DNA of 64,000 nt, from NCBI GenBank assembly GCA_013115135.1, contig JABANP010000188.1, positions 1 to 64,000 on the forward strand, read 5' to 3'. Shown in pieces: positions 2,560 through 59,265 of this stretch. This stretch comes from Perkinsus olseni. Lineage: Eukaryota > Perkinsozoa > Perkinsida > Perkinsidae. Numbering within the stretch: position 1 is the stretch's first letter; the number at the start of each line of letters is the position of its first letter. The notes below the pieces were generated by a model. The model searched no databases, was not told the origin of the DNA, and saw nothing but the letters and a program-made list of their open reading frames with translations. Position numbers and translations under genes: made by a program.

Positions 2560-3010
2560 ATAACTCAGTACAGTGTGGCTATTTGAGACGGGGCTCAAAG
2601 AAAGGTAGAACCGGACTCGGGAGGAGTTCGGGAAACTGATCTAGTTGTTGGATTTATGGTGAACGTATGTTCCATAGCATGACGAGGAACGCACGTGTTT
2701 GCTGGGACGACCGTACGTATAACGAGCAAAAGCGCACAAAGAGCAAGGTGGGTACGTAGCAGCAATGAAGGTAGTTGTCACTATAGTGCACTCGGTTACA
2801 GAGTGGATATTTGAGGCTATAACGAGGCTTGAAGGATGGTAAAAGCGGAATCGATAGGAGTCCGGAGAAAGCTGGTCTCGGGGCAGTTCCAGGGTGAAGG
2901 TATGTTCACTACTAGTGAATCACTAGCATGACAAGGAACGCATAAAGGCGCACAAAGAGGAAGGTGGGCACAGAGCGGCAATGGAGGTAGTTGTCGCTAT
3001 AAGTCAGCGG
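2560..3010 (-). repeat. dispersed repeat with GTGGCTATTTGAGACGGGGC core
   Basis: A block beginning with a TGTGGCTATTTGAGA-type core followed by AAAGGT and GGACTCG recurs at about 2575-2640, 2800-2880, 10270-10340, 10835-10900, 13310-13360 and 53590-53650. Its reverse complement lies at about 14090-14150. A second block linked to it (GCAGCAATGAAGGTAGTTG followed by CACTATAGTGCA) is seen at about 2760-2795, 2960-3005 and 53800-53840. No open frame or clear terminal repeats were found, so it could be a MITE relic or a non-autonomous element. Confidence 0.5.
2905..2926. repeat. chained odd palindrome
   Basis: TTCACTA-c-TAGTGAA (2905-2919) overlaps CTAGTGA-a-TCACTAG (2912-2926). Both have perfect 7-bp arms and a one-base centre. 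Confidence 0.85.
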
Positions 3011-3510
3011 CAGAGATAGACGGTCATGTACCGATTGCTTCCTACTCGATTGCTATGCTAATTCAACCTACGCGAATGGCGGAGGAACGGTAGATAAACG
3101 AGCTAGAGCCACTCATATTACTCACGAAAGGCATGCTTGCACCATGAACCCGTGTATGAGAGAGGGACAGCAGAACTAAGTAGACACAATAACAGCTTAT
3201 ACGGAATAACCAACAAACAGAAATTCAACAGATTACAACCGAGTGCAGATCATATCTGACCTCACACGAAACCTCTGGTCTCCGACATGGGGCTGTGCGC
3301 GGTATCCCACTGGCGTCTGTAAGGTCGGCTGGGCCTCACGACGGCAGCGACGGCACCGCGAAGACAACCGAGGCCCGTGCTGAGGCCGAAGGCGCTGCTA
3401 CAAATGGCAGTAGCGCTTCGGCACCCGCAATTTACATCTCAGGCCAGTCAGACAGAAAAGAACCACTCAGACTTGCCTACATGTGCTTTCCCCTCCCGAA
3501 GTTTCTACTG

Positions 3511-3532
3511 AAGCCACGGTGGCTTAGCCACC
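3511..3532. repeat. chained odd palindrome
   Basis: AAGCCAC-g-GTGGCTT (3511-3525) overlaps GGTGGCT-t-AGCCACC (3518-3532). Both have perfect 7-bp arms and a one-base centre. Confidence 0.85.
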
Positions 3533-3959
3533 CCCGATGCTTTGCATGCCACTGCGGCATCCCGCACAAAGGCGGCATTGCCGCACAGGTTGCAACCTAG
3601 GTCAACTACTTGTTTAATAAACAATGTTTATCCGCTGAAGAAAAGTGTTATCAGTGCATGTGTGGGTGTAGGCGATAGTTATATTTGAGTACAGGTCATC
3701 TTTGCCCCCTCCCAGGGATACGGGCCATGGTTTGCCCAACCTGAGTTATTGCCTAACGACTCGTTAGTAACGAGCCCTAATGTGAGGTCTCAATAGAAGT
3801 GCGCGGGCGGAGACAGACTATGTGGTATGTCCATGTTTTGTGTCGTTCACCCGTACGCACGACGCTGGTGCTTGCCTCTTACACTTGAAAGATACGACTT
3901 TTCTGTTCTTCGGCCCCTTTTTCTGTTGTGTACGCCGTAGGCAGCCGAGTCTATTCCGC

Positions 3960-4250
3960 CCCTTGGGCTCTATCGGAGAACGGACAGTTGAGCGAGGATC
4001 TGTAGGTGCTGGCCTCCTACAACAAGTGACAGCTCAAGTCACTGCAGGCCGCTGGAGTCGATGCCAATGGGCACTCAACCATCACCGTATAGTCGATCGC
4101 CTAGCCCAACACTGCCTATCCCGCCTGGACAGTCGTCTATACTATAGACTATAGACTCTATAGTGTTCAGCTCCCACAGTCAGAGTGGGCCCCAGGGGCT
4201 CATGGGCGGTGCCGAACGCCGCCCTCTCGGGACGCACTCCAAGTTGTTTC
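3960..4250 (+). pseudogene. degenerate copy 2 of the last exons of the Pro-rich gene
   Basis: Similar to 1160-1410 of the first gene: it keeps the MPMGT-type start of the last exon (around 4061), the CAGTCAGAGTGGGCCCC stretch and the CTCTCGGGACGC block. The frame is broken by a tandem CTATAGA insertion at about 4138-4162. The copy ends near 4235, where the sequence diverges. It is not expected to encode protein. Confidence 0.6.
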
Positions 4251-4790
4251 CTGAGCACATGCTGTACGCTACCCTCACGCAGAAGGCAACGGGAGTTGTT
4301 GTTCCGCTCGCCTGCCGTAATCGGCGCGCACACTGACTCTTACTCGCAATTTCTAGGCCTGCGAGTCCCCGACTATGCCGTTTGCTCCCACTCTTGAGAA
4401 CACGCGAGTAGACAGTCTCTGAGCGAGGGGACGGGCTCGAGCTTCTATTCGACAGTGCCACTGTCACAGTGGGGTTAAGATTACTGGGTTAACGCTGCCC
4501 GGCACTGAACTTATACCAATCATTCGGTCTAGGAAATGATAGTGTAGAGTGGAGGAGTTCTCCAGCATGGTCTGGGTCTACGACGACCCGTAAACTGGGA
4601 TAAGAGAAAAAATGGCCGTTGACCGACCGTTGCGAAAGATACGTCCGACTGCAGGGCGCACGCAAATATGTAGTGCCCATAATTGACAGGCCTTTCATCC
4701 TGGCACCTACAATCGGTTCCCCAAGGGCCATTCGTGAATGGTGGGGGAGTGATTGGCCTCTGGCGCTGATGCCGCTTTGTTAGGGATCCT

Positions 4791-5114
4791 TCAGGCAAAT
4801 ATGAGCTCGCAAAATGATCGAACGTCATCGGACTTGCCGGGGCCGTCGTAACAGCAGTCATGATACAGCGTGAGACTGTCGTATTGTCTCCCACAGTAGT
4901 AGCATACGGCATTCACGTGATCGTCATAGCAACAGGCGAAGGTCTCACTGAACTTAGGGTCTGCACAAGTCTCCCCTTGAGCGGGCAAGCTTCTCGCACC
5001 GTATTCCTCGAGACCTGTCATGCCGTGCTGCTCGGCGTTACCGAGCGTGGCAAAGAGTATGTAAGTGAGTGTGATGTACAACAGAGTTGCGAAATCCAGA
5101 GAAGGCAAGGGCAT
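4791..5114 (-). CDS. cysteine-rich secreted protein, family member B
   Basis: 107 residues, single exon. Residues 1 to about 26 are a signal peptide (hydrophobic LLYITLTYILFATLG, cleavage probably after NAE or just before). The mature part has the full eight-cysteine pattern C-x10-CC-x8-C-x2-C-x12-CC-x13-C, including the shared GRxYDS and DCCYDGPGK segments, and ends with FCELIFA. It is the second of five minus-strand paralogues. The family resembles secreted disulfide-stabilised effectors in general form only; I know of no named family with this exact spacing, so function is left open. Confidence 0.8.
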   Translation of the reverse strand: MPLPSLDFATLLYITLTYILFATLGNAEQHGMTGLEEYGARSLPAQGETCADPKFSETFACCYDDHVNAVCYYCGRQYDSLTLYHDCCYDGPGKSDDVRSFCELIFA

Positions 5115-5713
5115 TACAGGTGTCTTATAGGCGCCTTAGAAGACTGACAACGGACATTTGTTACTTTTTGGCGGTTTCACTTGGGACGCAGGCCGTCGAT
5201 GGAGATGTACAATCTCGCTTAGTCGCGGGGTGGACTCTACTCGAGCTGCGCAATAATCGATCGTGAAGCACGGAGAGTCTGCGCCACAAACTCTGCAGGC
5301 AGAGACAGACGGTCGTGTACCGACTGCTTCCAACTCGATGGCACAGATAGTTCAACCTGCCTGTCTCATGACGAGAAGAACGCACGAACCAGAGCCAATC
5401 GTATCGCTCACAAAAGGCCCAGTCATGCGGCATGATTCGTGCCACGACCACACGGATGAGAAAAGGAATCGTGATCGGAGGTAAGGGGACACCATGACAG
5501 TGACCCGAAACTCGCCTCAGTGTCAAGCTGTCTACTTGCCGCGGACGGAGTGCAGACTTTATTTTACGGCTCGCAGAAGTCTCTGCCACTCATATCAGAA
5601 AAAATGACAGTGAAATCAGGAAAATTCATTCCTTGGTATGATATGCTTCCGTCTTGCTAGTAGCATGACGCTTAGCTCGCCGGTGAAATTTCCCGCAAGG
5701 GAGCCGCGTGCAG

Positions 5714-5735
5714 TTGTCTCAGAGACAATGTCTCT
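5714..5735. repeat. chained odd palindrome
   Basis: TTGTCTC-a-GAGACAA (5714-5728) overlaps AGAGACA-a-TGTCTCT (5721-5735). Confidence 0.85.
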
Positions 5736-6589
5736 ACCGCTGGGAGTTATTTTCGCCCCTTTTTTGGAGCATCCACACTAGTGGCAGTCAAATCACGACG
5801 TCGATGCATCATAGGTGAGCTATCGACTCCGTGTCTTTACACGTTCGGTTACCTAAGAATCTCAGAAGAGAAAGACCATCTGCTCCGCTGAACTTCACTG
5901 TGTGGAGATACAACTTCTGTGAGCAGAAGTTCGCAGAATGGCCGCAGAATGGAACTCTCACTGAGGAAGTGCAGGTTTACATAAGAAACAGCAACGCCTG
6001 AACACCATGAAGGGCGCCATCAAGTTGATGGCATCAACTGTGAGGCGTCAGCAAATAGTCGAGGCTCCTAACGCGCCGGTTCGGGAGCTTCAGGGATGCA
6101 GGAAGGAGACCGAGCTAGGGAATACGTGGTTGATGGCCTTCGTGAAATGCCGTTGATACAGCCGATGAGAGCACGACATACACTCAACTCAGCCCGACTC
6201 TTTGTCAGGATACGTCAGACTAGACTAGTCACTGCGTTATAATGGTGGCGAGGTCCGCTAAGCGTATCGCTACTAGCGACAGTCTCAGGCCTTTATACAA
6301 TTCTCAGGGCCTAGCATTCACTCGTTGGCAGTGAGGGATAGCTCGATGATGAGAAATCACGGCAAACATCGGCGAACTCAGCCTATCACATTTCGACCCA
6401 CGGCCACCATTGAATAGTCGGTCACCCGTCCATTACTCAGCATCGTCAACATCAATCGCTCATATTTCATCGGTTCGATCCGGCAGTACTGGTTCGTTTC
6501 GCGGCTGTCGTATCGCTAAGGGCGAGGGCCTCGGCCCGAGGCTCGCGCATCACGTACCGTGCTAGTGAATACGACTTGACTACCCGAGA

Positions 6590-6622
6590 GATAGTAGTTA
6601 GATAGTAGTTAGATAGTAGTTA
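6590..6622. repeat. 11-bp tandem repeat, three units
   Basis: GATAGTAGTTA is repeated three times head to tail, followed by degenerate GATAGTA copies to about 6660. Confidence 0.85.
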
Positions 6623-6948
6623 TGATAAAAGAATAAGTTAGATAGTACTGATAGAGTAGACAGTGGCGTATCGTGAGGCGAACGAGTTCCTACCACTTCC
6701 CCAATGTAGTGACATGGGACAGTTCAACTGTCACAGTTGTACACAGTCTCTTGAAGAGATTCTCTCTCGAAGGATCTTTCATGGAGGAAAGCTTGCGCTT
6801 GAGTTTACCCGGTTTACTCAGTCGAGTTCGTCCGGAGGCGCTGGGGTAGTGTCAGATGCTCATGCGTCGGCCCGCCTCACACTGCCAGTGCCGATGGTGC
6901 CGCCGGCTCGAGCCAGCAAAACGAACGCTGACTTTCTTCCCTTCAAGG

Positions 6949-6971
6949 CACTGCCAGGCAGTGACTGCCTG
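6949..6971. repeat. chained odd palindrome
   Basis: CACTGCC-a-GGCAGTG (6949-6963) overlaps CAGGCAGT-g-ACTGCCTG (6955-6971). Confidence 0.85.
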
Positions 6972-7240
6972 TGCTGTCCATACCTGCCACCGGTACAGCT
7001 GATAGAAAGAAAGGCCCTGCTATACTCCTACAGTCAAACGACCGTGAGGCACTGGGAGACACAGAAGGTAACGCATGAGCCTGCCATCTCCTTGAAGGGG
7101 AAGCGGTTCCATAGGGATTGGCAGCAGTCATAATTACGGATAGTCGTATATCGTATTCGACCCTCAGAATACCTCCTGCTCCAACGTTCCAATCTATTCT
7201 TGTGACTCTCGCGCACTGCTATGCTTGGGTCCTAATTTCA

Positions 7241-7600
7241 CGTTTCACACTTCAACCAATCAAGCAGATAGTGTGATAGTGACAGCCTGGCTTCACCTCC
7301 CTAAACTAAACTCATGGCCATCGGGCTATTTAGAAAGGCCAACTTCAATCGGAATTACCAGTTTAAGAACAATGACACGGTATGTACCGGAAAAACCTGG
7401 ACCAATGTCGGCCACCAACAGTGGGCCGCATAGCCGATGCCCTTGAACTCCAAGGCTTGAAGTATCATCGGATGATCATCGTCCGGATTGAAAATTAGGA
7501 TGTTCAAAAAATCTATTGAGCTCGGACACGTACGGAATATTCCGTCAACGATAAGGTGGTACTGGCCTCCCAAAGGCCGAATTCTGGTGTTTCTCTTCGG
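7241..7600 (-). repeat. conserved 3' flank of cysteine-rich genes C, D and E
   Basis: This block, with 9240-9600 and 12190-12560, is clearly similar across the three loci: a CTAAACTCATGGCCAT start, a long purine-rich segment, then a GATGATCCTTAAG-like block nearer the gene. It lies just downstream of each stop codon. Stops differ between copies, so I read it as shared 3' UTR and intergenic sequence carried along by duplication. Confidence 0.55.
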
Positions 7601-7611
7601 AGTCTTATCTT

Positions 7612-7923
7612 CTACCTGAACACAGCAATGCAAAACGTCCTCGTCGCCGCGTCTTTGTCGGGGCCGTCGTAGCAACAGTCAGGATAGAGTTCTCTGCTAT
7701 CATACATCCTCCCGCAAAAATAGCATACACGTTTGATATCGTCATCATGGCAGCAAGTGTTGTAGTCTTTGTAAACGGGGTCCTGGCATATATCGGTTTC
7801 AAAGACTTTCGTATCGTGTTCAGGGCGAACAGGTTTGGCTACATGGCGTACAGGCTTGTCTTCATGGCGTACAGGATGGTCATCCTCACGGCTAGACGTG
7901 TTACCGCAGCCCAGTCGACTCAA
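7612..7923 (-). pseudogene. cysteine-rich family member C, 5' end replaced by a fusion junction
   Basis: The cysteine module is intact: C-x10-CC-x8-C-x2-C-x12-CC-x13-C, with NTCCHDDD and DCCYDGPDK as in D and E. The N-terminal half is not the family signal peptide. It consists of a short degenerate repeat (PVRHEDK, PVRHVAK, PVRPEH), and the open frame runs into the antisense of the copied Pro-rich exon at 7897 onward. The first codon is TTG, not ATG, and no hydrophobic signal segment precedes the module. A duplication breakpoint near 7.89 kb appears to have removed the promoter and signal peptide. It is probably non-functional unless spliced to an upstream exon that I cannot see. Confidence 0.6.
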
Positions 7924-8345
7924 TCCGCGGGCGCAGTCAGAGACCGGACAGCCAAACGAGGATGTGTAGGTGTTGGACCCCTACAAATGACAACCTACGT
8001 CGCTGCAGACCGCTCGAGCTCATGCCAATGGGCACCCCACCGTTGCCGCATAGTCGATCACCTAGCCCAACACTGCCTACCCCGCCCGGACAGTCGTCCA
8101 TAGTGTTCAGCTCCCACAGTCAGAGTGGGCCCCAGGGGCTCATGGGTGCCGCACAGCTTCGCCCTCTCGGGACACCCTCGCCTCCTCCTCCAGCGGGGAT
8201 GATGATCCACATGCCCTCCCCCACCAATACTGTCGTGTAAGGCTTTGGTGTATTCACAGTAGCGACCGCATGCACTCAGACATCCGAGCTGTAATGGCCC
8301 GGCGACCTCTCGATGACAGTCCGTATGTAATTCCACTGCGAGTAC
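7897..8345 (+). pseudogene. truncated copy 3 of the Pro-rich gene 3' end (exons 7-8 and 3' flank)
   Basis: Homologous to 1124-1600. It retains the exon 7 acceptor, the GT-AG intron between exons 7 and 8 (about 7966-8010) and a complete last exon ending in MMIHMPSPTNTVV at 8240, plus about 130 bp of 3' flank. All upstream exons are missing and it abuts cysteine-rich gene C head to head. The last exon has stayed nearly identical to the source, so either the duplication is recent or the copy is under constraint. Confidence 0.65.
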
Positions 8346-9520: not shown

Positions 9521-9565
9521 ACGGAATAGACTATTCCGTAGTTTCAGGACTATTCCGAATAGTCC
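9521..9565. repeat. two neighbouring odd palindromes
   Basis: ACGGAATAG-a-CTATTCCGT (9521-9539) and GGACTATTC-c-GAATAGTCC (9547-9565) both have 9-bp perfect arms. The paralogous flank near 7535-7550 has a single even palindrome, ACGGAATATTCCGT, at the equivalent place. Confidence 0.85.
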
Positions 9566-9634
9566 GTTAACGATGGGAAGGGTACTGGTCTGCCAAGCAC
9601 CAAATGCTGGTGAGTCTCTTCCGCGCCGTATAGT

Positions 9635-11397: not shown

Positions 11398-11660
11398 CAC
11401 AAGAGTGAAGGGAGGCGCCAAGAAAGCCTTGAGTGTGCGAACGACTGTGTAGGCAGCATAGGCTATGCTGCATAGCTGATGGCAAAACAGCGCAACTATA
11501 GCGAACACACTGAGGATACCGTTCTCAGCCCTCAGCATTATCACACATAAGGAAGTATCGAGGCAGCAACACTCAAAAGCCCACCCACTCATGAGTAAGC
11601 TTACACGACTCGCAGCACGACCTCGCGAATGAGAAGGGGCCTCGTAAGACTAGCAGCAAG

Positions 11661-11977: not shown

Positions 11978-11992
11978 GCCAGCTCAGCTGGC
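11978..11992. repeat. odd palindrome
   Basis: GCCAGCT-c-AGCTGGC, with perfect 7-bp arms. Confidence 0.85.
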
Positions 11993-13330: not shown

Positions 13331-13975
13331 GGCTCACGCGACGACCAGACTCGGTTGCAGAGAGGGGAAAGAAGGGGGAACTATAGCTAGATCTCTAGAG
13401 AGATGGAGAACGAATATGATGAACGCGAGTAAATCATAGCAGAGCACACAGCTGTTGCTATGGAGCATCGTAGTGCAACGCTGCACTGCAAATGTCGATA
13501 ACAGTGAACCTGAAAGGTGCTCGATACGGTACGATATAACGCTCGTGGGCAAAGGCTCGTGCTTGCCAGAGAAAGAAGCTATCCAAGGTTGTGCTCTTTT
13601 GGCTCTCTGAATAGTGCTAGCTTCGCACGCATCAGGTAGGCGTCACTTGCCGCAGAAGCTGGACGAGGTTACAAGCCTGTAACGGGCTCTTCGAGTATTA
13701 TGCCCTTGGCTCGGTGCAGGGTATGAAAGGTGATAGCCTATCAGTGATAGGCAGCCCGATTTCAGTAGCTACTGTTTCGACGAGTAGATGCCGAGGCATT
13801 TACCGGTAGAGCAGCGGGAAACAATGTGGAGACAACATGAAAATAGCTGCACTGTAGTGACGACTATAGTGTACGCTATGTAACAACTATAGCCTTGTTC
13901 AACACTACTCAGCTGTTAGACTACAAACGCTGCACTTACTTTTACTGCTACTGTGCATCATTTATCTCAGATAAC

Positions 13976-13997
13976 CGTCTGTCAGACGCCGTCTGAC
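13976..13997. repeat. chained odd palindrome created by a 14-nt insertion
   Basis: CGTCTG-t-CAGACG (13976-13988) overlaps GTCAGACG-c-CGTCTGAC (13981-13997). The paralogous copy at 18160-18185 reads straight from ATAACC into ATCTGACCT and lacks GTCTGTCAGACGCC. Confidence 0.85.
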
Positions 13998-14101: not shown

Positions 14102-14120
14102 GAGTCCAGCAGCTGGACTC
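14102..14120. repeat. odd palindrome
   Basis: GAGTCCAGC-a-GCTGGACTC, with perfect 9-bp arms. Confidence 0.85.
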
Positions 14121-14996
14121 CAGCTTTTCTTGCTATGTCTCGAATAGCCACACTGTACTCAGTCACAGTGCATAACCGTCCAGAAAATATTAGTTCGCTC
14201 GATTGCTGTACCAACGTCCTGTCGAAGCCTGCGACTCGCAGGCGATGGCTGGAGCTCGGTTCGTATCTCTTAGAAGTATCAAATCAAGGTTTCGCATCAA
14301 AATTGGCATCGAGCGTTCCCCCACTGAAACAGTTTCGTAAGGATCTTGGTGTGCGAAGGTTGTGAGGATTATGTGTCCTCGCATGTGTTGTACTATGCAG
14401 CTCGAGTGTGAGCTTAAAGTCGGAATCCTCTCAATTATACCCCCATCAACATGCTCATCAGCGTTTTCTGCACTGATCGATATTGAGCGAGAACTCGGCT
14501 CACGAAAACTGTAAAGGGTCTGCGCCAAGCTTCAACTAGAAGTCTGAACTGCCCTCGGATATTCTACGCTTTCACTGGTTCTCTGAGCTTGAGGTTGCTA
14601 CGTTGAAAACTGGTCTAATCCGCGAGACCTCTGCTAGTTTCGGCAAAACCTGCAAATCAAAACGTTGTATGCTTATCTGAGAGAGAACTTTTGCCTCGAG
14701 CTGTCACAGAGTAGAAATACGTCCGTAACAGCCGGACTAATTCTAGGATCGGAATCCGATATATCGTTCAAGTCGAGCGAAGAAGGTTCCACTACTGTTG
14801 CTCCTGGTCGCTCTCATAGTCAACCCAACACCTTGGTGATGTCGCTTGTGGTAGTGATAATGACAAAGGGATCAACAAAAGGTATTGCACCAAACTATCT
14901 TGTACTTGCGTGCTACAGCTAATGTAAAATGCTGATGAGAATCACAAGGTAACAAGTTGGTACCATACTGAGTCCGCGTACAGCAACACTAGCGGC

Positions 14997-16123: not shown

Positions 16124-16145
16124 ACTCCGTGACGGAGTCTCCGTC
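16124..16145. repeat. chained odd palindrome
   Basis: ACTCCGT-g-ACGGAGT (16124-16138) overlaps GACGGAG-t-CTCCGTC (16131-16145). Confidence 0.85.
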
Positions 16146-17220: not shown

Positions 17221-17242
17221 GTATCTAGTAGATACTATCTAC
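17221..17242. repeat. chained odd palindrome
   Basis: GTATCTA-g-TAGATAC (17221-17235) overlaps GTAGATA-c-TATCTAC (17228-17242). Confidence 0.85.
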
Positions 17243-17758: not shown

Positions 17759-17781
17759 GCCACAGTCACTGTGGCACAGTG
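17759..17781. repeat. chained odd palindrome
   Basis: GCCACAGT-c-ACTGTGGC (17759-17775) overlaps CACTGTG-g-CACAGTG (17767-17781). Another single odd palindrome lies just upstream at 17533-17547 (GCGTCAC-g-GTGACGC). Confidence 0.85.
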
Positions 17782-17999: not shown

Positions 18000-19330
18000 T
18001 ATTGACGAGCCGTCAATGACGACTATTCTATGCAAAAGCTATCAACTGCTTCGGTACTTCTGACTCAGAAGTTCTGAGCAATAACTACTCAGGTTTTAGA
18101 CTATTATCACTGCACTAATTGCAGTGCAATTTTCCTCATTGCTACTGCGTATCATTAATCTCAGATAACCATCTGACCTCATTCTGTGCCTTGCACTCGC
18201 GTGCATGAGTATGTATTCTAGGTTACGCTGTAGATCCCCTCGTCCCCCTTAATCCTCTTTTCCCAGCTTTTCTCCTTTCTTTGGGTCCTGCGGTATTCGA
18301 GGAAGGACTCCTGCCTCGAATACCCACGCTGTACTGAAATATAGTGCACTAGCGGTAGCAGCTCCTTTTTCTTGAAGGCTATGCTTGTGCGTGGACTTCC
18401 ACTCTGGTGTCTAATCGTCTGCATGGAGATCGAGCGCGAGCTCTGGTCATGCAGCAACCTCTTCCTTGTCGATATCTCGCGTTCGGTTTCTAGCTGCAAT
18501 AGCTGTTCGGACTGTGATACGGTATCATTGATACCTCTATGACTTCGGCTTTTTATTGAGAGTAATTTATTGTTCCATCATGGTAATATTCGCAGAATGA
18601 ATACAAGAAACGAGAATCGTAGCGGGAAGATTTCGGTATGACTGAAGTTGATACCCGAAAGTGATGTCCTTATCGGCGAAATTGACTCTCTTAATCATGA
18701 AATTGAGGGCCTTACTCACGGAGTGGAATTCCTTATTTGAGGCCTGCCGCTAAAAGAACTTACCCTAAGCCGAATAGGCCAAGAGAGCACCGGGAGATAA
18801 TTTGGAGAAAACACCAAGATAGCCATCCAGAAAGTAACGATACGCTCGACCGCTGCTGTACCGACATGCTGTCGCGATGAGGATCGGAGCTCGGTTCCTA
18901 CAACGTGAAAACATCGAATCAAGGTTTGACATCAAAATTGGCATGGAGCGCTCCCTCGTATACGGGTAGATGGCTCTTGAACAGATGTGAAGGTCTTCAG
19001 GACACTTTTCCGTGTTCTGCTCTCAGAATTTGCTGCGAGCGCTGACTCTGGGACGCGCCTAACAGTGCCCTGTTGGGACGCCTCCGCCAGGGGGAGATGA
19101 TACAAGCGCCCTACCCCACTGAGACAGCCTCGTAAGGATCTTGGTGTGCGAAGGTTGTGAGGACTATGTTTCCTCACATGTGTTGTACTATGCAGCTTGG
19201 GTGTGAGCTCAACGTCGGAACCGGCTTAATTATTTTCTCATCGATGTGCTCAGCTCCCGAGAGCGTTTTCTGCACGAATCGATATGGAGTTATCATTCAG
19301 TTTACGGAAGAATTTCTCTAGGGACATCTG
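18000..19330 (+). repeat. segmental duplication, copy 2
   Basis: Second copy of 13830-14600, with extra material near 18240-18700 and 18965-19120. It contains odd palindromes of its own at 18056-18078 (chained), 18117-18131 and 18514-18535 (chained), which are absent or different in copy 1. The palindromes therefore post-date the duplication. Confidence 0.65.
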
Positions 19331-19465: not shown

Positions 19466-19498
19466 CCTGTCGTCGACAGGATCGACAGGCTGTCGATC
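19466..19498. repeat. two chained odd palindromes
   Basis: CCTGTCG-t-CGACAGG (19466-19480) is followed directly by GATCGACAG-g-CTGTCGATC (19480-19498); both use the word CGACAG. Confidence 0.85.
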
Positions 19499-38760: not shown

Positions 38761-39163
38761 TCACTTGCCTTTGAATTTTGTCATACCGTCGGCTCCGTAT
38801 GAGAAGCGTAAGTCCTAACGAGACCGATTGAGAAACTGCGTCACGACAGGGTCATCGAGGTGCGGAGGAATGATGACGGAGTCGTTGTGAGAAATGGTCC
38901 CTGGCCCTGGCAACAGGAACGGGCACGCAGCATGAGGATGTCCTCGGCAAGTTTGATGAATGTTCCAAGGTCGTAACTTAGGTCTCACTCCCTAGTCGGT
39001 GAGCTCGGGGCCGGTGGCACGCTGTGGACCAATCGAGGAACAGCCTGAGACTCAACTTTCGTCGCAAGTTGCGACTCGCAACCTCAGGTTACTAGAAAGG
39101 CACACTATCAACACCATCATCATCTTGCGAAGTCCTGGAAACACTGTACAACTGGGAGATCGT
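38761..39163. other. intergenic
   Basis: Nothing recognisable. Confidence 0.4.
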
Positions 39164-40127: not shown

Positions 40128-41884
40128 CTAGCAACACAACACGCTGAGGGATACGAGACCACACCAATCATCACAATGCGGAAGGCTCATGACCACCATC
40201 CATGCTAAGGGCGCTGAGGGCAAGGCTGACCACGGGCCACAGCGGCCATGAAGAGCGTAGGGAGTAGTCAAGCTGAACCGCACCAGCCGGAGACGAGGAG
40301 ATATCTGCCCACCACCGATTGGAAGGAGCTGGGCGAGTGTGCTACCGAAGGCTATGATCTCCTGAGCTGCACTGAGCAACGAGGCCCGATACTCCCGACT
40401 GTCGGTGGTGACGGCCACCTGTCACCATCAGTAGCAACACGGCACGGTCTCGCGGCGCCTACCGCAGCCAGGGCCGTGGCGAAGGGCAGAGGGTTGGCTC
40501 GAACGAAGGCGTCATCGGCGGAAGCTTCGTCAGACAGCAGCTGCTGCGAGATGATGGTCATCCCAGCAAGATCCCCAGTAGTGAGAGCTCTGAGGTGGAC
40601 ACTCGTTGACGGAGTCGATATGGCCGACTCACGTAGACAGATTGGTGTGGTAGGCCCCTATCAAGGGATGATCAAGACCGTCATTCGGGCTGACAGGAAG
40701 GCCTGTAGGGAGATTCCGTAGCTGCCACTGAGCCTGCTACCGCATCGTCTTGGCGGCCACGGCACCCAGAATATCCTCACCAGGAGTGGGAAGAACGGCC
40801 AGCCGCTGACGTGCACGTCAGCCCATGGTATGTCTACGACGAGCGTCATCAGAGGACTGTGGAGCTTCTCATTCGACACGACCGACTCGGAGACCTGATG
40901 GGCGTCAGTCCAACTGCGCTAGAATGACGTAGTACACTATCAGCTCCTAGAGTGTTGATGGCCGCCACCACGCCCATCAGCTGAGTGACGAGCCGGGCCA
41001 GTCCACAATCAGCCGTAGTGGTGAGCAGATCGACCGGCAGCGTCTCGGACACCGCCTACACAGTGATGCCAGCTGATCGACGCGCGGTGATGGCCACTTG
41101 TTCCAGAACGATAAGGTCGCTATCGCCTAGTAGTTGCAGGGATGCTTCTGGGCGCATGAGCACCGAGGCGAGCAAGCGTTTGGACTCCTGCCATCGGGGA
41201 CCGCAGGGGAGATCTAGTGCCTGGGATGGGGGACCTCTATTGGCCTCGCCTTTGCGCAAGTTTGCTTCACAAGTTGTGAATCACAACCATGTAGTGAGTG
41301 GAAATATTTTGTAAGACAGTCCGCGACGAAAGCAACCACACACGCAAGAATGAGGCATAATAACCTCATTCTTGCATGTGCCATTTTGCCGCTCTTAGGC
41401 TCCAGAAATAAAACGACGCTTTTACCTCAGACGGTTGTGGCACCGCTCCGCCATCGTCAGTTGCTTCTACTACTGGTGGCGGTGGTGGTGGTGGTGGCGT
41501 AGCTTCTACCGCTGCGACGGGCATCTGCTGAGCTGATCTGCAATGAGCACGTGCCTCAACTGACGCTATACGCCCAAGGCACACTTAGTGTCATTTTCGG
41601 AAGGGCTCCAGATGGCCCAGTCCTCTCGAAGCTGCTTGATGTCACTGACAACATACCGTTAACAGCAGAGATGGTGAGCCACCATACGTGCCAGAGCCGC
41701 CCTCCACTGTGGTTCGAGACCCGCTGCCAGACACACTACGGACGCCATCCACGTTGACCTCAGCGTAGCTGGCGCTGACAGTCTCTTGATGAACATGCCA
41801 CCTGAGCCCGGCCTGGCGCACTTTTCGCACAGTCAACTCACTCATTAGCCTTCCTATCCGCCCCATCGACAGTCGAGGCAGCAT
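40128..41884 (-). CDS. multi-exon helical protein(s) of unknown function
   Basis: From the 5' side: MSELTVRKVRQAGLRWHVHQ then VNVDGVRSVSGSGSRTTVEG; a 43-nt intron; DIKQLREDWAIWSPSENDTK; a 50-nt intron; SAQQMPVAAVEA with a Pro8 run; a longer intron; SKRLLASVLMRPEASLQLLG then DSDLIVLEQ; a 42-nt intron; AVSETLPVDLLTTTADCGLA with RLVTQ; then EKLHSPLMTLVVDIPWADVH and a possible end at 40661. Further exons TGDLAGMTIISQQLLSDEAS and VAVTTDSREYRASLLSAAQE follow down to about 40280. These may belong to the same protein if 40661 is intronic, or to a second gene. The late parts look like alpha-helical solenoid. No family is recognised. Confidence 0.4.
41344..41375. repeat. 12-bp perfect inverted repeat, 8-nt loop
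   Basis: GCAAGAATGAGG and CCTCATTCTTGC lie inside the long intron of the helical-protein gene. Confidence 0.85.
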
Positions 41885-45319: not shown

Positions 45320-46550
45320 AGTGGTACACTACAGAGCGGTCTGATCAACAACAAGCATTACTGCATCGGCAAATTTTGCCGGGCAAAAACTCAACTCGAA
45401 CTTCCCTGAACGCATCGACGGTATCGCATCTCTTCGTATGCGTGTTGGTGACAGGGGACGCCCTTGTCCCCCAACGAAAGTAGCGCATTCAATGCTTCAA
45501 ACCTGCAGATTCGAGGATTCTGATCGATCGTTCCTCCAAGCATGTGCCTCCTGCGAGCCTCTGGGACGGGGCGGCAGTTTCGCTATTGCAGAGGGCATAT
45601 CTTAGATGGTCGAGGGGGTTGACCCCTTTCGTTGTGTCCGGCGAAAACTGTCTACCGAGGATACAGCGAAGCTAGAACCATGGGCGGCTTGATGGTTTGG
45701 GGCACATCGGCCTTCTAGTTTTCTGAATTGCGAGTATCTTGACGACTCGCATATTGCGAGGATCAACTTTTCGTAATCTTGTTTTCGAACTGACGGAAGG
45801 GGTTCCACACTGTGATGGCTAATGCGTTGCGCCCTTCTCGCTCGACACGCACATAGTAGCGCTGCCCAGGGGAATGCTAAACGCCCTGTTCCTGGTTCGT
45901 CGAACAAAGCCGAGTTCATTACGCCGCCTGAACTCCAGGAAGCTCTTTTTGAACTACCTCGAGTCGCAATTGAATCGATTGTGATAACTGGATCGCCACT
46001 GGGTCGGTATTAAATTCGCTACTCATGTTCGCGTCGCCTAGCTAGCCACGAGAGATTCCGCGCGAGTGGTGATACGGTATGATGTCTGATCGCCACCTTT
46101 GGAATGCACATGGTATGATGAGACCTCAGGCTGAGGTCCTCAGCATCGGAGCCTTCGACAGCCTCGCATCCCGAGAAGTCCTCTCGCATTTGCTGAACCT
46201 AATCGGAACAGACAGTCTTTCAGATGTATGCGTGGATTGGAGTCACTCGATGGGGCTCCACTCGAGTGTAATTACGGCGAAAGGGACTGCACTAGCCTCG
46301 CAGGCGGGGCTCGCGGAGGAGTGAAAGGTTCTCAAACTCGAAGGACATATTCAACTACTCCGAAACTGCTCCAGCACTGCCAACGCAAGCGCACGTCGCT
46401 CAACTCTGCTCGATTCGAGCTCTCGAGGTATGCTGTGAGCAAAAAAAGTTAGCATAGAATGAATCTAAATACCTCGGCTTCTTGCTAATATTCTTCCGAG
46501 TAGACGTTAATCTCGTCCGGAGTGCGCAAAGCCTCGCATGACTGCTTGAG
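45320..46550. repeat. duplicated upstream region of the FPPNK genes, copy 1
   Basis: Matches 46960-48870 in order, including ACTCGCATATTGCGAGGATC (copy 2: GCAAGTTGCGAGG), the TTCCACACTG block, the AATGCACATGGTAT block and the CTCGCGGAGGAGTGAA block. No gene is supported in it. A chained odd palindrome lies at 46122-46144 (GACCTCAG-g-CTGAGGTC overlapping GCTGAGG-t-CCTCAGC). Confidence 0.6.
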
Positions 46551-46551
46551 G

Positions 46552-46953: not shown

Positions 46954-47540
46954 ACGAAGTGGTACACTGCATTGCGGCTTGATCAATGAACAAGCATTTC
47001 TGGGGGTGGTCAATAGACCTCCACTGAATTCCAGAAGCGCTCCCAGGATTGAATTTGACGTGCGGAAGATGATTCTGGGAGCACTCCTGAATCCAGGTCT
47101 ATTGAACACCCGGACTGCATCAGCAAAAGACCCAACTTGAGCCCCCCAGCACGCATGAACGGTATCTGCAGATCTTCGTATGCGCCTTTTGGCTCCGTCG
47201 AGGGCAGCAGATTCCATACTCCGAACCTGCAGGTTCGAGACTTCTGATAGATTTTCCTCCAAGCATGTGCCTCCCACGAGGTCGTGGATCTGGGCGGCGG
47301 TCTTGCTATCACTGCAATAGTATTGCAGAGAGCATGACTTGGATGGCCGTATGAGTTGAATCTTCTCTTTGTGTCCGGCAGAAACTGTCTACCGTGGGTA
47401 CAGTGGCGCTACCAGCTAGAATCACGGACGGCTTGATGGTTCATGACGCATAGGGCTTTTCATTTTCGGAGTGCGAGTATCTTGACGACTCGCAAGTTGC
47501 GAGGTTCAACTTCCTATAATTTCGTTTTCGAACTGCCGGG

Positions 47541-47563
47541 AGTGGTTCGGAACCACTGGTTCC
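47541..47563. repeat. chained odd palindrome created by a 14-nt insertion
   Basis: AGTGGTTC-g-GAACCACT (47541-47557) overlaps GGAACCA-c-TGGTTCC (47549-47563). The paralogous site at 45797-45812 has a single GGGGTTCCACAC and is 14 nt shorter between the same flanks. Confidence 0.85.
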
Positions 47564-48206: not shown

Positions 48207-48231
48207 CACACCAGCCGTGACGGCTGGTGTG
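48207..48231. repeat. odd palindrome with 12-bp arms
   Basis: CACACCAGCCGT-g-ACGGCTGGTGTG, perfect. Confidence 0.9.
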
Positions 48232-51355: not shown

Positions 51356-51471
51356 ACGAAGGGATACACTGCGGAGCCACAGGGACGATGAACTCATTCT
51401 AGCCCCGAGTCTGACTCAATTCCACGCGATAATCGCAGCGACTCCTTGCATCCCTGCGTAGTGCTTAGCAT

Positions 51472-51493
51472 GCGTAGGCTACGCAGCGTAGCT
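51472..51493. repeat. chained odd palindrome
   Basis: TGCGTAG-g-CTACGCA (51472-51486) overlaps GCTACGC-a-GCGTAGC (51479-51493), upstream of protein 4. A decayed version (GCGTAGGCCACGCAGTG) lies upstream of protein 3 at about 49815. Confidence 0.85.
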
Positions 51494-52885: not shown

Positions 52886-54331
52886 GTTGGAGTGAAGCGT
52901 CTAGAGGTGTAAGTCGGTAACTACTGCCAATACAGATGGTCTGCCTGGAATCACCCAATTGGGATCGATAGTTGTGTCTTGCGTTACGGCAGGAACGAAT
53001 CGCTGACCTGTTTTTGCTGCCGGCCACAAGCTCACCAGTGCTGAGCTAATGAGTCACCATCTGTCACCACCTACTCGTACGCTACTCGACCAATAGCACG
53101 CACGATAAGTATCCGTGTGTTCGTAACAAGCGTTGGTCCGTACGCTAAGCTATGCGCAATGGCTGGTTTTCGGCTGTTCCGCTGGTTTTGCAAAGCGTTT
53201 GAAGTTGAACTAAAAATTTCAACTGGAGCACCGAAAATCTGTCCATGGTTTTAGAAAGTTATCGAACTCTTAATGAATAACTCAGAAATTGAAGAAACGT
53301 CTCCGGCCGATGATATCTGCAATCAATGCAGGTCGAAGACGAACTGTGTTATACATGTTAGATGCAGGCCAAATCCCTGATTTTCGCTTCCCGATTTTTC
53401 GTTGCTAGAGTCACAGTATTGAAGGCGAACAGTGACAGCTGCGGTGTCGATGCCAAGTTTGTAGTCGAGCATTTGAATGCACTCAAATTTAGCTTCTCCC
53501 TTCAGCGGAATTAGTTGTGTTGGGTAGGCTTAGTGTATAGTATGCCGCTTGTCGAGAATTGGCAGTGTGCATTATAACTTTTAGTCTATAACTCGGTATG
53601 GTATGGCTATTTGAGACGGGGCTCAAAGAAAGGTGAGATTGGACTTGAGGGTAGCTAAGCAATACTGTGATCTACAGCTTACCAGCCTAAACTTAGTGTG
53701 GCACGTATACTCATGCACGCGAGTGCCAAGTTTAGAATGATATGAGATACTGGTAGTAAGTAAGCAGTAGCGATGGTTGTCACTATAGTGTGCAAGGTGG
53801 GCGAGCAGCAGCAATGAAGGTGGTTGGCACTATAGTGCAAGAGCCATGGGAAGAAAAGAGGGCCTCATCGGGCGTCGCCCCAAAATTAATCAACCGAATC
53901 TACTTGCGTTCTGCTAGCGCGCAATATTGAGCGATGCTGCCATCTGTCCAGTCGTGCGTGCTGTAATAACTCGGATGTCTTCGCGACCGAGAACAACCAT
54001 CATCAGACAGCATAAGAAACAAGAAGAGAGCGTCATTGAAGCTCGTTTCGGTCTAGACTAGTTGCCACTCGGTCTGAGGCTCACAGTGTAAGTACGCACT
54101 TTCCAGGGCTACCCTTAAGGTTCTCATACATTCACCACTCAAGAACTCTACAACTCTCTAGAATCAACTAGTCCAACGTGGAATGGCATTCAACGTAAAC
54201 CAGTTGTGAAAGTATCATTAAAAGTCATGAATAACGAGAGATATCGATAGAGAATGAGTAAAGAGTAGCCGCAAAGATTCTGTCCAGCATACGTTCCCAC
54301 GATGAAGTATTGAAAGTGAGAGGTTCGTCGA
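52886..54331. other. gene-free spacer
   Basis: No gene supported. 53590-53840 is a reverse copy of the dispersed repeat also found at 2.5-3.0, 10.3, 13.9 and 18.1 kb. Confidence 0.45.
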
Positions 54332-54718
54332 CTAAACTTTTGGAGGGAAAAACTTGATTGCCGACAATACAATATAATGACCATGGAATGATATAGTAAA
54401 GGTATCATCACTGCTGTCGTAGAATATGCTCGCCCAGGTCCTGACATTGAGGTCGTACTTCTTCGCAAACGCTTGGAAGTTGTCATCGTAGGTTCTCAGG
54501 TGCATCAGGGACCCATCAGAGCTGACGTCGAAAGGCATACCACCCGTGTAGTCAAGAAGAGGAGAATCATAGGGAATTATGAGGATGGAAACTTCACCGG
54601 GATCGAAGACCCACACACTTTTGAAGAATTCATTGTCCACATTAGAGTACACCATACTCTGGGGGAAGGTGGCCACCCTACGAAGGGATGCTATGAAGAG
54701 AACGAGGAGGGGAGACAT
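54332..54718 (-). CDS. FPPNK-family secreted protein 5
   Basis: 128 residues from ATG 54718 (MSPLLVLFIASLRRVAT). The mature start is FPQSMVYSNVDNEFFKSVWV, so the FPPNK motif is altered to FPQS while VDNEFFKSVW is kept as in protein 2. GGMPFDVSSDGSLMHLRTYD, NFQAFAKKYDLNVRTWASI and DDTFTISFHGHYIVLS follow. It is more diverged than 1-4 but collinear over its full length. Confidence 0.75.
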   Translation of the reverse strand: MSPLLVLFIASLRRVATFPQSMVYSNVDNEFFKSVWVFDPGEVSILIIPYDSPLLDYTGGMPFDVSSDGSLMHLRTYDDNFQAFAKKYDLNVRTWASIFYDSSDDTFTISFHGHYIVLSAIKFFPPKV

Positions 54719-54997: not shown

Positions 54998-55019
54998 ATC
55001 TCGGTCCGAGATTCTCGGA
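54998..55019. repeat. chained odd palindrome
   Basis: ATCTCGG-t-CCGAGAT (54998-55012) overlaps TCCGAGA-t-TCTCGGA (55005-55019). Confidence 0.85.
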
Positions 55020-55772: not shown

Positions 55773-55796
55773 GTCACACATTGTGTGACACACAAT
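55773..55796. repeat. chained odd palindrome
   Basis: GTCACACA-t-TGTGTGAC (55773-55789) overlaps ATTGTGTG-a-CACACAAT (55780-55796). Confidence 0.85.
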
Positions 55797-57169: not shown

Positions 57170-57193
57170 GTTCACCCGGTGAACTGTTCACCG
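57170..57193. repeat. chained odd palindrome
   Basis: GTTCACC-c-GGTGAAC (57170-57184) overlaps CGGTGAAC-t-GTTCACCG (57177-57193). Confidence 0.85.
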
Positions 57194-57465
57194 AATAGCC
57201 TATACTCCGCGGACACCGAACTCTGAACTACTTTGAGAGTATTTCCATATTAACAACTCAACCTCACAAAACTCGGCAGCATGAGTCTTATTGTACGACT
57301 TCTACTTGTAAGGCTCAGCAGAAGTTTCCCCGTCTAACCTCTGCTCGAGAAAGCCCAGCTGCAGCAAAATTGTTGGAAGAGACGCTGGGGCTGTGGGCCT
57401 GCCATCTGCAAGCACCTCAACATAGAATTGTCAAGAGTTATCGAATCAATGAAAATGATTATCAG

Positions 57466-57963
57466 TTAATAAATACTTTCATATGAGATCCCCGCCGATA
57501 GTAATAGATCCTTCAGTCGACGGAAATCTCGATCGGCATCCCTCCTCCTGGTGCCCTGTGGAGGCGGGACAGGTGGCTTACCGACGGCTTTAAGAATAAT
57601 CTCATGACCCTGGTATAGAACAGTAAAGGTATCATAGTTGCGGTCGTAGGGAATACTCTTCCAATCCTCAATGTTGAGGCTGAATATCCTCAAAAATTCT
57701 TGGAAAGTCAACTCATGAACGTGCAGCATGATAGCTTGGTCGTTGGGGCTCGGGTCCCAGTCAATGTCTCCCGTGACGTCGTGACGAAAGGGGACCTTCG
57801 ACGTGTCAGCGTCGAGAGCACAGATCTTGACCGTCAAGGGGGAATCGAAGAGAAACCCGATCCACACGAACTCGTTGTCAACATTGGCGTAGAACTGTTT
57901 AGGTCGGAAGGCGGCCAGTTCATATAGAGACGCCACCAGCAACACGTTACGGAGGTGGAGCAT
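57466..57963 (-). CDS. FPPNK-family secreted protein 6, C-terminally extended
   Basis: 165 residues from ATG 57963 (MLHLRNVLLVASLYELAA). The mature start FRPKQFYANVDNEFVWIGF is the most diverged of the six. VTGDIDWDPSPNDQAIMLHV, TFQEFLRIFSLNIEDWKSIP and YDTFTVLYQGHEIILKAVGK keep the family plan. After the usual end (PPVPPP) it adds about 30 residues of charged helix (RRRDADRDFRRLKDLLL). It is the outlying member of the array. Confidence 0.75.
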   Translation of the reverse strand: MLHLRNVLLVASLYELAAFRPKQFYANVDNEFVWIGFLFDSPLTVKICALDADTSKVPFRHDVTGDIDWDPSPNDQAIMLHVHELTFQEFLRIFSLNIEDWKSIPYDRNYDTFTVLYQGHEIILKAVGKPPVPPPQGTRRRDADRDFRRLKDLLLSAGISYESIY

Positions 57964-59265
57964 ACGGGTAGTTCACTGCAGAGAGGGGCTGATGAACCCG
58001 TTAGTTGCACCCTAGGGATTCGACATAGGCCCACACGCATACACGATATATGGGCCGCATGTTGTGCGTGCGGGTCACAGAGACGCGTCCCCTCACTTGC
58101 CATTCAAGTGCATTTCACACTTCCACACCGTATGCGTAAGGATCCTCATTAGTCGCTTCTCGCATAAGAATGTTTCGCAATCTGGCTGGCCGTCCGTCGT
58201 CGGTGTTGTCGCATGTAGGATGCTCTTTGCGTTGGCTTTTTCTCCTCGTAACTACTAGACACTGTCCACTAAGGATACAACGGCCACTGTCACCAGTTGT
58301 TCGGTGGCGCCAGGGAAGTGTGCCTTTCCAACTTCTTGAGGGTGCAAGTTCTGCGCAGCTTTCCTGTTGCCAGGCACCGATTTCGTGCATTCTCATCCTG
58401 CACTAACGGAGTGGTCGTCGACCGTGAAGATGCACAAGCTGCGCCCGCTGAAGCCGGAGCACGTGTGCAGTACCGCTCCTACAGGGAATAGCTAGCTGTT
58501 CCCAGCGTCCCCAACGGTTGGGGACGTGGAGTTCCTCGGGTTCCTGAGTTGTTGTCACAGGCGGTGGTTCGCCCGTCGTCTCCTCCTCGTGCCAGAGTGT
58601 TGATTCAAGGCGCAGTGGGTAGTCCGTCTGCCAAGGCGCCGCCGTGTTTGCCGAGGGCATGGTGAGTTGGACGTCCAGTAACGGATGCTGTAAGCTTGAG
58701 GGCTACATCCTGCGTTCCCTCATACTCCAACTCGACGACGTACAGGCATTAGTATTCGGGACCCGAGTTTTCAAGCTCAATAAGCAGAGGAAATTTCATC
58801 GCTCGAACCGCGCCGAGCTCATGTGTGGCGCGATCCCGAGTTTTCACCTCAGCTGCTGTGGTACCCTAACGTTGATGATGTTATCAACCCTTAGTGATAC
58901 ACTGTCCCTTCTTAATGTACATGGCGATTTTGGCTGTAGTTAATGATGATCGGAATGGTTACTCCTGTACCTCTTCTGCTTCACCACTGGCTGTGCTCCT
59001 GGGTTCATTCCCACATACACGGAATGAGTGATGAAGAAGGGATTACAGCAGCGTGTCGCCCTTTGTTCCGAACGTTCGTTTCCACAATGGTAGTCGCGCC
59101 GCACTGCCCCAGCAAGGCTGAACTCTCCAAACACAAGATATGGTGCGAAAAGAAAGTACACATCGGAGTGTCGAGTACGTGCCACGTACCACGTGGAGAC
59201 AGCGGTATATAACTTCCAGTGCTTCCATCGTCAGTATAAGGAGACTTCACAGTAGCCATCTTTGC
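57964..59265. other. spacer between the FPPNK array and the ATPase
   Basis: No gene supported. 58506-58526 is a perfect odd palindrome (CGTCCCCAAC-g-GTTGGGGACG). The ATPase 3' end defines the right edge. Confidence 0.45.

What the first reader, a model, noticed from the sequence alone, without database searches (positions are those of the whole stretch)
2905..58526. Excess of perfect inverted repeats with a single-base centre
Reading by eye I found more than 30 perfect inverted repeats with arms of 7-12 bp and exactly one unpaired central base: 2905, 3511, 3610, 5714, 6528, 6949, 9521, 9547, 11661, 11978, 13736, 13976, 14102, 14227, 16124, 17132, 17221, 17533, 17759, 18056, 18117, 18514, 19466, 46122, 47489, 47541, 48207, 50439, 50484, 51472, 54998, 55773, 57170 and 58506, among others. 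A random 7-bp-arm odd palindrome is expected about once per 16,384 positions, so roughly four in the window. The longest (48207-48231) has 12-bp arms. A one-base loop cannot be a stable RNA hairpin loop, so selection for RNA structure is a poor explanation. A DNA process that copies a strand and folds back at one base, or a protein needing dyad sites with odd spacing, fits better.
Basis: partly seen in the sequence, partly recalled or inferred. Interest (0 to 1): 0.88.

Follow-up and report, generated by a model that had tools for sequence, protein, structure and literature searches.

The report
Jumping-gene exit scars across a genome
The many tiny mirror-image sequences are mostly one kind of 22-letter scar, most likely left each time a cut-and-paste jumping gene of the hAT group leaves its place in the DNA of this single-celled organism, so the genome seems to keep a readable record of such departures.

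Summary
The spike is real: 82 one-base-loop palindromes with arms of 7 or more in the window, against 2-9 for each other loop size 0-12. Most come in overlapping pairs forming one 22-nt unit: an 8-mer T is replaced by T[1-7]·revcomp(T)·T[2-8], net +14 nt. 264 kb hold 51 exact copies and 116 with at most 2 of 14 pairings broken, 0.85 expected. T leans to the hAT target pattern nTnnnnAn. At 8 distinct sites a related copy has T once and lacks exactly 14 nt. The genome has hAT transposase domains, one element with an exact 8-bp duplication and one with a near-exact one. This is what hAT excision should leave if both flanks close as hairpins offset by one base, open far from the tip, and the tails anneal through the duplicated target. 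Rarer end-joined products with arms up to 26 nt support hairpins. The 61.5-Mb genome carries the Perkinsus spliced leader. A rough estimate is 22,000 recognisable scars (10,000-39,000, hand-picked stretches). Palindromic hAT footprints are known; so uniform and dense a set was not found in the open-access papers searched.

The parts
2905..2926 (.). exact 22-nt footprint, T=TTCACTAG
   Evidence: 14 of 14 pairings
3511..3532 (.). exact footprint, T=AAGCCACC
   Evidence: 14/14
3610..3631 (.). exact footprint, T=TTGTTTAT
   Evidence: 14/14
3753..3774 (.). exact footprint, T=CTAACGAG
   Evidence: 14/14
4135..4163 (.). rare 29-nt product: both full hairpin arms of T=GTCTATAG joined end to end (net +21); related copies at 1213-1408 and 7983-8179 lack 21 nt
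4451..4472 (.). exact footprint, T=GACAGTGG
   Evidence: 14/14
5714..5735 (.). exact footprint, T=TTGTCTCT
   Evidence: 14/14
6017..6038 (.). exact footprint, T=CCATCAAC
   Evidence: 14/14
6718..6739 (.). exact footprint, T=GACAGTTG
   Evidence: 14/14
6949..6970 (.). exact footprint, T=CACTGCCT
   Evidence: 14/14
9521..9565 (.). read as an end-joined long-arm product: two 9-nt-arm palindromes, centres 26 nt apart, same T (GGAATAGT)
11455..11476 (.). exact footprint, T=AGCATAGC
   Evidence: 14/14
13975..13996 (.). footprint with one pairing broken; a 71%-identical copy in L020 lacks 14 nt
14104..14125 (.). exact footprint, T=GTCCAGCT
   Evidence: 14/14
16124..16145 (.). exact footprint, T=ACTCCGTC
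   Evidence: 14/14
17221..17242 (.). exact footprint, T=GTATCTAC
   Evidence: 14/14
17760..17781 (.). exact footprint, T=CCACAGTG
   Evidence: 14/14
18057..18078 (.). exact footprint, T=CTTCTGAG
   Evidence: 14/14
19466..19498 (.). read as an end-joined product: two palindromes, centres 16 nt apart, same T (CCTGTCGA)
39061..39082 (.). exact footprint, T=GTCGCAAC
   Evidence: 14/14
41266..41287 (.). exact footprint, T=TTCACAAC
   Evidence: 14/14
45367..45388 (.). exact footprint, T=CGGCAAAA
   Evidence: 14/14
46123..46144 (.). exact footprint, T=ACCTCAGC
   Evidence: 14/14
47306..47327 (.). older footprint (12/14); a 71%-identical copy at 45475-45697 lacks 14 nt
47542..47563 (.). exact footprint, T=GTGGTTCC
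   Evidence: 14/14
48207..48231 (.). one-base-loop palindrome with 12-nt arms, outside the 22-nt class; read as a single long hairpin arm
   Evidence: excess of the class; the reading is inference
51471..51492 (.). exact footprint, T=TGCGTAGC
   Evidence: 14/14
54998..55019 (.). exact footprint, T=ATCTCGGA
   Evidence: 14/14
55774..55795 (.). exact footprint, T=TCACACAA
   Evidence: 14/14

Best explanation
The palindromes are excision footprints of hAT-type cut-and-paste transposons. Insertion duplicates an 8-bp target T. On excision the transposase nicks one base outside each end and each flank closes into a hairpin, so the left flank reads t1..t7, then the complement of t8, then t7'..t1', and the right flank likewise. 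Host nucleases open the hairpins about 7 or more nt from the tip, giving long 3' tails. The tails come from the two copies of T and are complementary: they anneal, gaps are filled and ends ligated, giving T[1-7]·revcomp(T)·T[2-8] (+14 nt) wherever each hairpin was nicked, as long as the tails overlap. Sometimes tails are joined without annealing, giving two longer palindromes in a row. SHOWN: the 22-nt structure with its 8-nt period and one-base offset, net +14 at single-T sites, the target preference, hAT transposase domains and elements in the same genome, and the rarer long double palindromes. INFERRED: that an element sat at each site, the hairpin intermediate, where it opens, and annealing as the joining step.
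For: Structure: the 8-mer, one-base-offset form has 51 exact hits in 264 kb (about 0.001 expected by 4^-14) and 116 with up to two pairings broken against 0.85 expected; of the other lengths and offsets tried none comes near this excess in exact hits, the next being m=10/o=3 with 6, and all 10 such sites in 325 kb are the same 22-mers lengthened by a pair. Repeats of a 6-mer with complementary outer bases: 62 at offset 14, 1-11 at each of the other 34 offsets from 6 to 40. Target: t2=T or t7=A in 107 of 244 half-sites (p=1e-11), G/C at positions 1 and 8 in 171 of 244 (p=1e-8), 122 unique sites; Hermes prefers nTnnnnAn and duplicates 8 bp (PMC10368747, passages). Insertion: 11 alignment rows at 86-94% identity show 8 distinct sites with T once and 14 nt missing, in both directions between L037 and L039. 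In 27 paralog alignments 14 nt is the commonest indel of 8 nt or more: 11 of 25, 10 of the 11 carrying the unit (some events counted against two partners). Machinery: 21 hAT dimerisation-domain matches, each over the cut-off; L027 open frame with DUF4371 and Dimer_Tnp_hAT; element L024:537-1967 with ends TAGAGATGGGC and duplication GTCCGGAG; element L012:823-1203 with a one-mismatch duplication, and a 71%-identical stretch (L051) without it. Hairpins: five exact T-matched palindrome pairs with centres 14-31 nt apart, arms up to 26. Ac/Ds footprints in Candida have inverted repeats centred on the complements of the bases bordering the element (PMC5873905, passages).
Against: No locus was seen in occupied, empty and scarred states. 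Element ends are few: 118 TAGASATGGGC matches against 30 for the reversed control pattern genome-wide, while scars are estimated at about 22,000; in the 264 kb no pair of 10-nt inverted ends with an exact 8-bp duplication was found, and 8 is not an enriched duplication length there. Only 23 of 122 sites have both t2=T and t7=A. Other hAT systems give mixed footprints, so uniformity needs an extra assumption. A Ku match is present, so loss of NHEJ does not explain it. L027 matches Hermes in the PDB only at E=0.73. In one search, 39 of 56 rows are not net 14 (10 have the scar in both copies, 6 belong to the 29-nt variant, the rest are other gaps, mostly in weak alignments), and 4 of the 17 net-14 rows are poor alignments. 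Some other structure sizes are mildly above chance (e.g. m=5/o=1 15 against 4; m=7/o=1 43 against 10 and m=12/o=5 28 against 0.85 with two mismatches allowed); the larger ones share pairings with the 22-mer, which I did not check site by site.
Confidence: 0.9

Rival explanations
1. Replication template switching: a polymerase folds back and copies its own strand twice, making the T / T' / T structure without a transposon.
For: The structure formally equals two fold-backs; short-range template switching is described in great apes (PMC7954356, search listing and start of abstract only).
Against: It would need two switches exactly 8 nt apart with a one-base offset every time and does not predict the target preference.
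Confidence: 0.04
2. A domesticated hAT transposase makes programmed or abortive cuts at 8-bp targets without a resident element, so the scars are not traces of moved elements.
For: Scars far outnumber the recognised element ends.
Against: Cut-and-paste elements that move often leave many scars at constant copy number; the decay spectrum roughly fits steady production. Neither separates the two readings sharply.
Confidence: 0.08
3. Another superfamily makes them, such as Dada (known from Perkinsus marinus) or a RAG/Transib-like element.
For: Dada has been described from P. marinus (PMC3706591, passages); other superfamilies were not searched for in this genome.
Against: Dada duplicates 6-7 bp (same passages); one-base-offset units of 6 and 7 nt have 3 and 1 exact hits against 51 for 8 nt. 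RAG/Transib: 5 bp and no central base (recalled); offset-0 units give 0 for lengths 5-13. The target preference is hAT-like.
Confidence: 0.04
4. Protein-binding dyad sites with odd spacing, or chance and base composition.
For: One-base centres are compatible with dyad sites.
Against: The sequence differs from site to site; a shuffle lacks the units; related copies lack the whole insert.
Confidence: 0.01

Closest known systems
Ac/Ds (hAT) excision footprints in yeast, Arabidopsis and Candida albicans (PMC5873905, passages seen)
   Same: Inverted repeats centred on the complement of the base next to the element; P-nucleotide palindromes; microhomology at the joint.
   Different: There, many types (28 among 128 events in Candida; arms of 3 nt or more in 66 of 140 yeast footprints, longest arm 20). 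Here nearly one recognisable product with full 7-nt arms on both sides.
Hermes hAT transposition (PMC10368747, passages seen; one-base-offset flank hairpin recalled)
   Same: 8-bp duplication and nTnnnnAn target preference; the offset hairpin would explain the one-base centre.
   Different: Transposase only remotely alike (not significant); Hermes footprints were not compared.
V(D)J coding-end P nucleotides (recalled)
   Same: Hairpin ends opened off the tip give palindromic inserts.
   Different: No central base, short palindromes, no fixed 8-nt period.
mPing repair through microhomology of the duplicated target (PMC4561436, search listing and start of abstract only)
   Same: The duplicated target guides joining.
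   Different: By its title mPing sites are repaired precisely; here hairpin tails leave +14 nt.

Membership tests
hAT excision footprint | palindromes centred on the complements of the bases bordering the element | tested here: met
   The +14 product has t8' and t1' as centres relative to the single T of unscarred copies
hAT excision footprint | 8-bp target duplication | tested here: met
   The 8-mer form stands out; element L024 has an exact 8-bp duplication
hAT excision footprint | nTnnnnAn target preference | tested here: met
   107 of 244 half-sites, p=1e-11; both positions in 23 of 122 sites
hAT excision footprint | hAT transposase in the genome | tested here: met
   21 PF05699 matches; DUF4371 and dimer domain in L027; activity not shown
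hAT excision footprint | unscarred relatives carry T once | tested here: met
   8 distinct sites with exactly 14 nt missing
hAT excision footprint | element seen at the very site before the scar | not testable with these tools
   One assembly only; no strain series
hAT excision footprint | mixture of footprint types as in Ac/Ds (usual, not defining) | tested here: not met
   Two-hairpin products with arms inside T: 83 of one type; the others 9, 7, 2, 1, 1 with 5.0, 2.5, 0.9, 0.1, 0.0 expected; trimmed products could not be recognised
Dada excision | 6-7 bp target duplication | tested here: not met
   6- and 7-nt one-base-offset units 3 and 1 exact hits against 51 for 8 nt; Dada's own cut offset is not known to me
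RAG/Transib-type hairpin ends | no unpaired central base, 5-bp duplication (recalled) | tested here: not met
   offset-0 units give 0 exact hits for lengths 5-13
Perkinsus (host) | Perkinsus-type spliced leader | tested here: met
   86 pattern hits, 85 identical to PmaSL1 less its first base

The most novel reading that the evidence does not exclude
In this lineage hAT excision repair is close to deterministic: flank hairpins are opened beyond the duplicated target and the tails anneal through it, so nearly every excision writes the same 22-nt scar, and these scars are a leading source of medium-sized insertions in non-coding DNA (about one per 300 substitutions by the steady-state fit). The genome would then be a counter of transposon exits readable from sequence alone.
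Probability: 0.45. Interest if true: 0.75.

Novelty: new variant of a known kind. Interest (0 to 1): 0.62.

Why it matters
A scar of fixed form lets single excision events be counted, placed and roughly dated without seeing the element, which is hard where footprints are short and varied. It offers a natural test of how transposon hairpin ends are opened and joined: a strong preference for one annealed product with a small end-joined minority. It also warns that one-base-loop palindromes in such a genome are scars, not regulatory sites.

Tried and rejected
Prokaryote or organelle origin: no tRNA and no Rfam match in the window; of 10 frames scanned, exon-like matches to a Na/Ca exchanger, a P-type ATPase and a cupin-8 family, in a 61.5-Mb assembly, point to a nuclear genome. 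An 18S search to name the host was sent six times and never answered. RNA structure was not pursued, since paralogs lack the insert. A separate m=10/o=3 class was rejected: all 10 sites in 325 kb are 22-mers lengthened by a pair. Perfect-excision scars (T twice in a row) are not in excess: 8-mer direct repeats at offset 8 number 6, and 6-134 at the other offsets from 6 to 40. Loss of NHEJ as the reason for uniformity: one Ku match is present, so set aside; an SNM1A/Pso2-like nuclease and a family-A polymerase with a sub-cut-off POLQ-type match (PDB matches only to Taq-type and other polymerase I) are candidates only. Search for the unoccupied and scarred states of the L012 element: one old unoccupied relative, no scarred one. 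Literature: searches, in open-access papers only, listed no description of genome-wide uniform palindromic hAT footprints or of such scars in Perkinsus; listings were capped and most subscription papers are not held.
Full report
1. Observation. The window holds 82 perfect inverted repeats with arms of at least 7 and a single central base; each of the loop sizes 0 and 2-12 holds 2-9. 31 of the 34 listed starts are exact, one is off by one, and two lie in units with a broken pairing and have no arm of 7 starting there. The same spike (113 against 9-18) appears in 20 stretches of 10 kb from other contigs. These stretches were picked by hand, several close to places listed, without looking at palindromes; they are not random. 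Density is uneven: L017 has 31, L012 21, L020 17, and three stretches have none.

2. What the unit is. In context most palindromes are two overlapping ones with centres 7 nt apart, and a direct repeat at offset 14 is found around 50 of the 82 centres. Together they are one 22-nt unit: for an 8-mer T, the first seven bases of T, the reverse complement of T, the last seven bases of T. Of lengths 4-13 and offsets 0-4, the 8-mer with offset 1 has 51 exact hits in 264 kb (window plus 20 stretches), where about 0.001 is expected. With up to 2 of 14 pairings broken there are 116 against 0.85; one dinucleotide shuffle of the same sequence had one. Other sizes are at chance or mildly above it (m=5/o=1 15 against 4, m=6/o=1 3 against 0.25; with two mismatches m=7/o=1 43 against 10, m=12/o=5 28 against 0.85, m=10/o=3 81 against 0.85). 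The larger ones share pairings with the 22-mer; only m=10/o=3 was checked, and all 10 of its exact sites in 325 kb are 22-mers lengthened by a pair. Of the 195 loop-1 palindromes counted lie outside 22-mers of score 11 or more (which skips 30 bases at stretch ends). The window has 44 hits of score 12 or more, 23 of them exact. A scan for a repeated 6-mer with complementary outer bases gives 62 at offset 14 and 1-11 at each of the other 34 offsets from 6 to 40.

3. It is an insertion of 14 nt at a single 8-mer. Aligning each unit of score 11 or more with related copies in hand gave 56 rows. 17 have a net gap of 14: 11 rows at 86-94% identity for 8 distinct sites (L021:434, L021:989, L033:1953, L036:442, L037:2289, L037:2999, L039:1824, L039:2500), two for window sites 13975 and 47306 at 71%, and four poor alignments. 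L037 and L039 each carry scars the other lacks. Of the other 39 rows, 10 have the scar in both copies, 6 belong to the 29-nt variant of paragraph 6 (net 21 or 20), and the rest show other gaps, mostly in weak alignments. In 27 paralog alignments with 1,030 substitutions, 14 nt is the commonest indel of 8 nt or more (11 of 25, some events counted against two partners), and 10 of the 11 contain the unit at score 12 or more.

4. The target is hAT-like. In 122 unique sites (score 13 or more), position 2 is T or position 7 is A in 107 of 244 half-sites (24% expected), G/C stands at positions 1 and 8 in 171 of 244, and an A before and a T after T are raised; both t2=T and t7=A hold in 23 of 122. Hermes, a well studied hAT element, prefers nTnnnnAn and duplicates 8 bp (PMC10368747, passages).

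5. The machinery is there. The genome has 21 matches to the hAT dimerisation domain, each above the family cut-off, a lower bound. L027 holds a long open frame with DUF4371 and the hAT dimer domain; its best PDB matches are Hermes, but at E=0.73 or worse. L024:537-1967 is a 1,431-bp element with ends TAGAGATGGGC and duplication GTCCGGAG. L012:823-1203 is a 381-bp element with a duplication differing at one base; a 71%-identical stretch of the same contig (L051) lacks it. TAGASATGGGC occurs 118 times in the genome against 30 for the reversed control pattern, so this end type marks at most some tens of elements; hAT families with other ends were not surveyed. In the 264 kb, exact 8-bp duplications around 10-nt inverted ends number 0.

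6. Mechanism. A hAT transposase nicks one base outside the element and the flank closes on itself (recalled from work on Hermes; Ac/Ds footprints are centred on the complement of the bordering base, PMC5873905, passages). The left flank then reads t1..t7 t8' t7'..t1', the right flank t8'..t2' t1' t2..t8. If each hairpin is nicked some way back, the two 3' tails are complementary because both come from T. Annealing and filling give the observed 22-mer whatever the exact nick positions, as long as the tails overlap. A scan for two-hairpin products with arms inside T found 83 of this type in 325 kb (near-identical loci included) and for the others 9, 7, 2, 1 and 1, where 5.0, 2.5, 0.9, 0.1 and 0.0 are expected. 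Products of opening near the tip are thus few at most; trimmed ones could not be recognised. Products joined without annealing seem to exist: five exact pairs of palindromes sharing one T with centres 14, 16, 17, 26 and 31 nt apart (window 4142/4156, window 19473/19489, L036:85/102, window 9530/9556, L012:3422/3453), arms up to 26 nt, against 89 pairs at distance 7; four further pairs have one mismatch and one arm of 5, and may be chance. Outside the 22-mers, one-base loops with arms of 10 or more are still in excess (14, against 0-6 for the other loop sizes 0-15); at arms of 12 or more loop 1 has 7 and loop 6 has 6, the latter not looked into. I infer that hairpins open 7 or more nt from the tip and that annealing is the usual joining step.

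7. Rate and number. From the 20 hand-picked stretches, exact scars scale to 8,600 (3,100-15,400) and scars with up to two broken pairings to 22,000 (10,000-39,000) in the assembly, bootstrapped over stretches. The counts at 14, 13, 12 and 11 pairings, 51, 32, 33 and 60, compare with 41, 33, 42 and 56 expected if scars form at a constant rate and decay by substitution (fitted on 12-14); more decayed classes exceed the fit (189 against 136 at 10, 705 against 554 at 9). The fit gives one scar per about 300 substitutions; the paralogs give 11 such indels per 1,030 substitutions, in loci chosen for hAT genes and in the window. Scars are rare in long stop-free frames: 3 of 116 in frames of 200 codons or more that make up 13% of the sample, 12 of 116 in frames of 150 or more (27%); as a +14 insert itself breaks frames, this is partly circular.

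8. Host. The genome has 86 matches to a spliced-leader pattern, 85 identical to P. marinus SL1 less its first base, some evenly spaced in arrays (PMC3101222, passages). For the window's ATPase frame the best hit that bears an organism name is Symbiodinium; the nine better hits bear none (8000 candidates scored, 120 of 374 listed). So the host is very probably a Perkinsus species; P. marinus has about 86 Mb (same passages), so this assembly is likelier a relative. Repair genes: one Ku match, one DRMBL match in an SNM1A-like frame, a family-A polymerase with a weak POLQ-type match. Mutation of Pso2, of the same nuclease family, lowers Ds excision in yeast (PMC5873905, passages).

9. Known and new. 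Palindromic hAT footprints are long known. The near-uniform annealed product, the density and the host were not described in what searches listed. In rice, 94 putative excisions of DNA transposons gave mixed outcomes with eight perfect ones (PMC4423477, passages).

Noticed in passing
window 44927-54591: Five diverged copies of a segment of 250 nt, spaced 1.6-3.4 kb: a tandem gene or repeat array, useful for comparing scarred and unscarred copies.
   Followed up: partly
window 1208-13381: Further repeated blocks, e.g. 1208-1435 / 7979-8206 (91%) and 7582 / 9605 / 12547.
   Followed up: partly
L012:3396-3448, L028:1270-1316, L040:1784-1828: Very long perfect palindromes with one central base (arms 26, 23, 22); of these only the first has a matching second T copy within 100 nt.
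   Followed up: partly
window 57170-57193: Two overlapping palindromes with centres 8 rather than 7 nt apart; perhaps a scar with one extra base.
   Followed up: no
window 59266-61329, minus strand: Frames of a P-type ATPase like ATP13A1.
   Followed up: partly
L027:3-758, plus strand: Frame that looks by eye like a retroelement reverse transcriptase next to the hAT gene; not tested.
   Followed up: no
L012:1211-1232: An older 22-nt-like unit (11 of 14) directly beside the 381-bp element, suggesting repeated use of one spot.
   Followed up: partly
sample of 325 kb (window, L001-L040): Palindromes with arms of 12 or more and a 6-base loop number 6, nearly as many as with a one-base loop (7); some may be copies of one repeat.
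   Followed up: no
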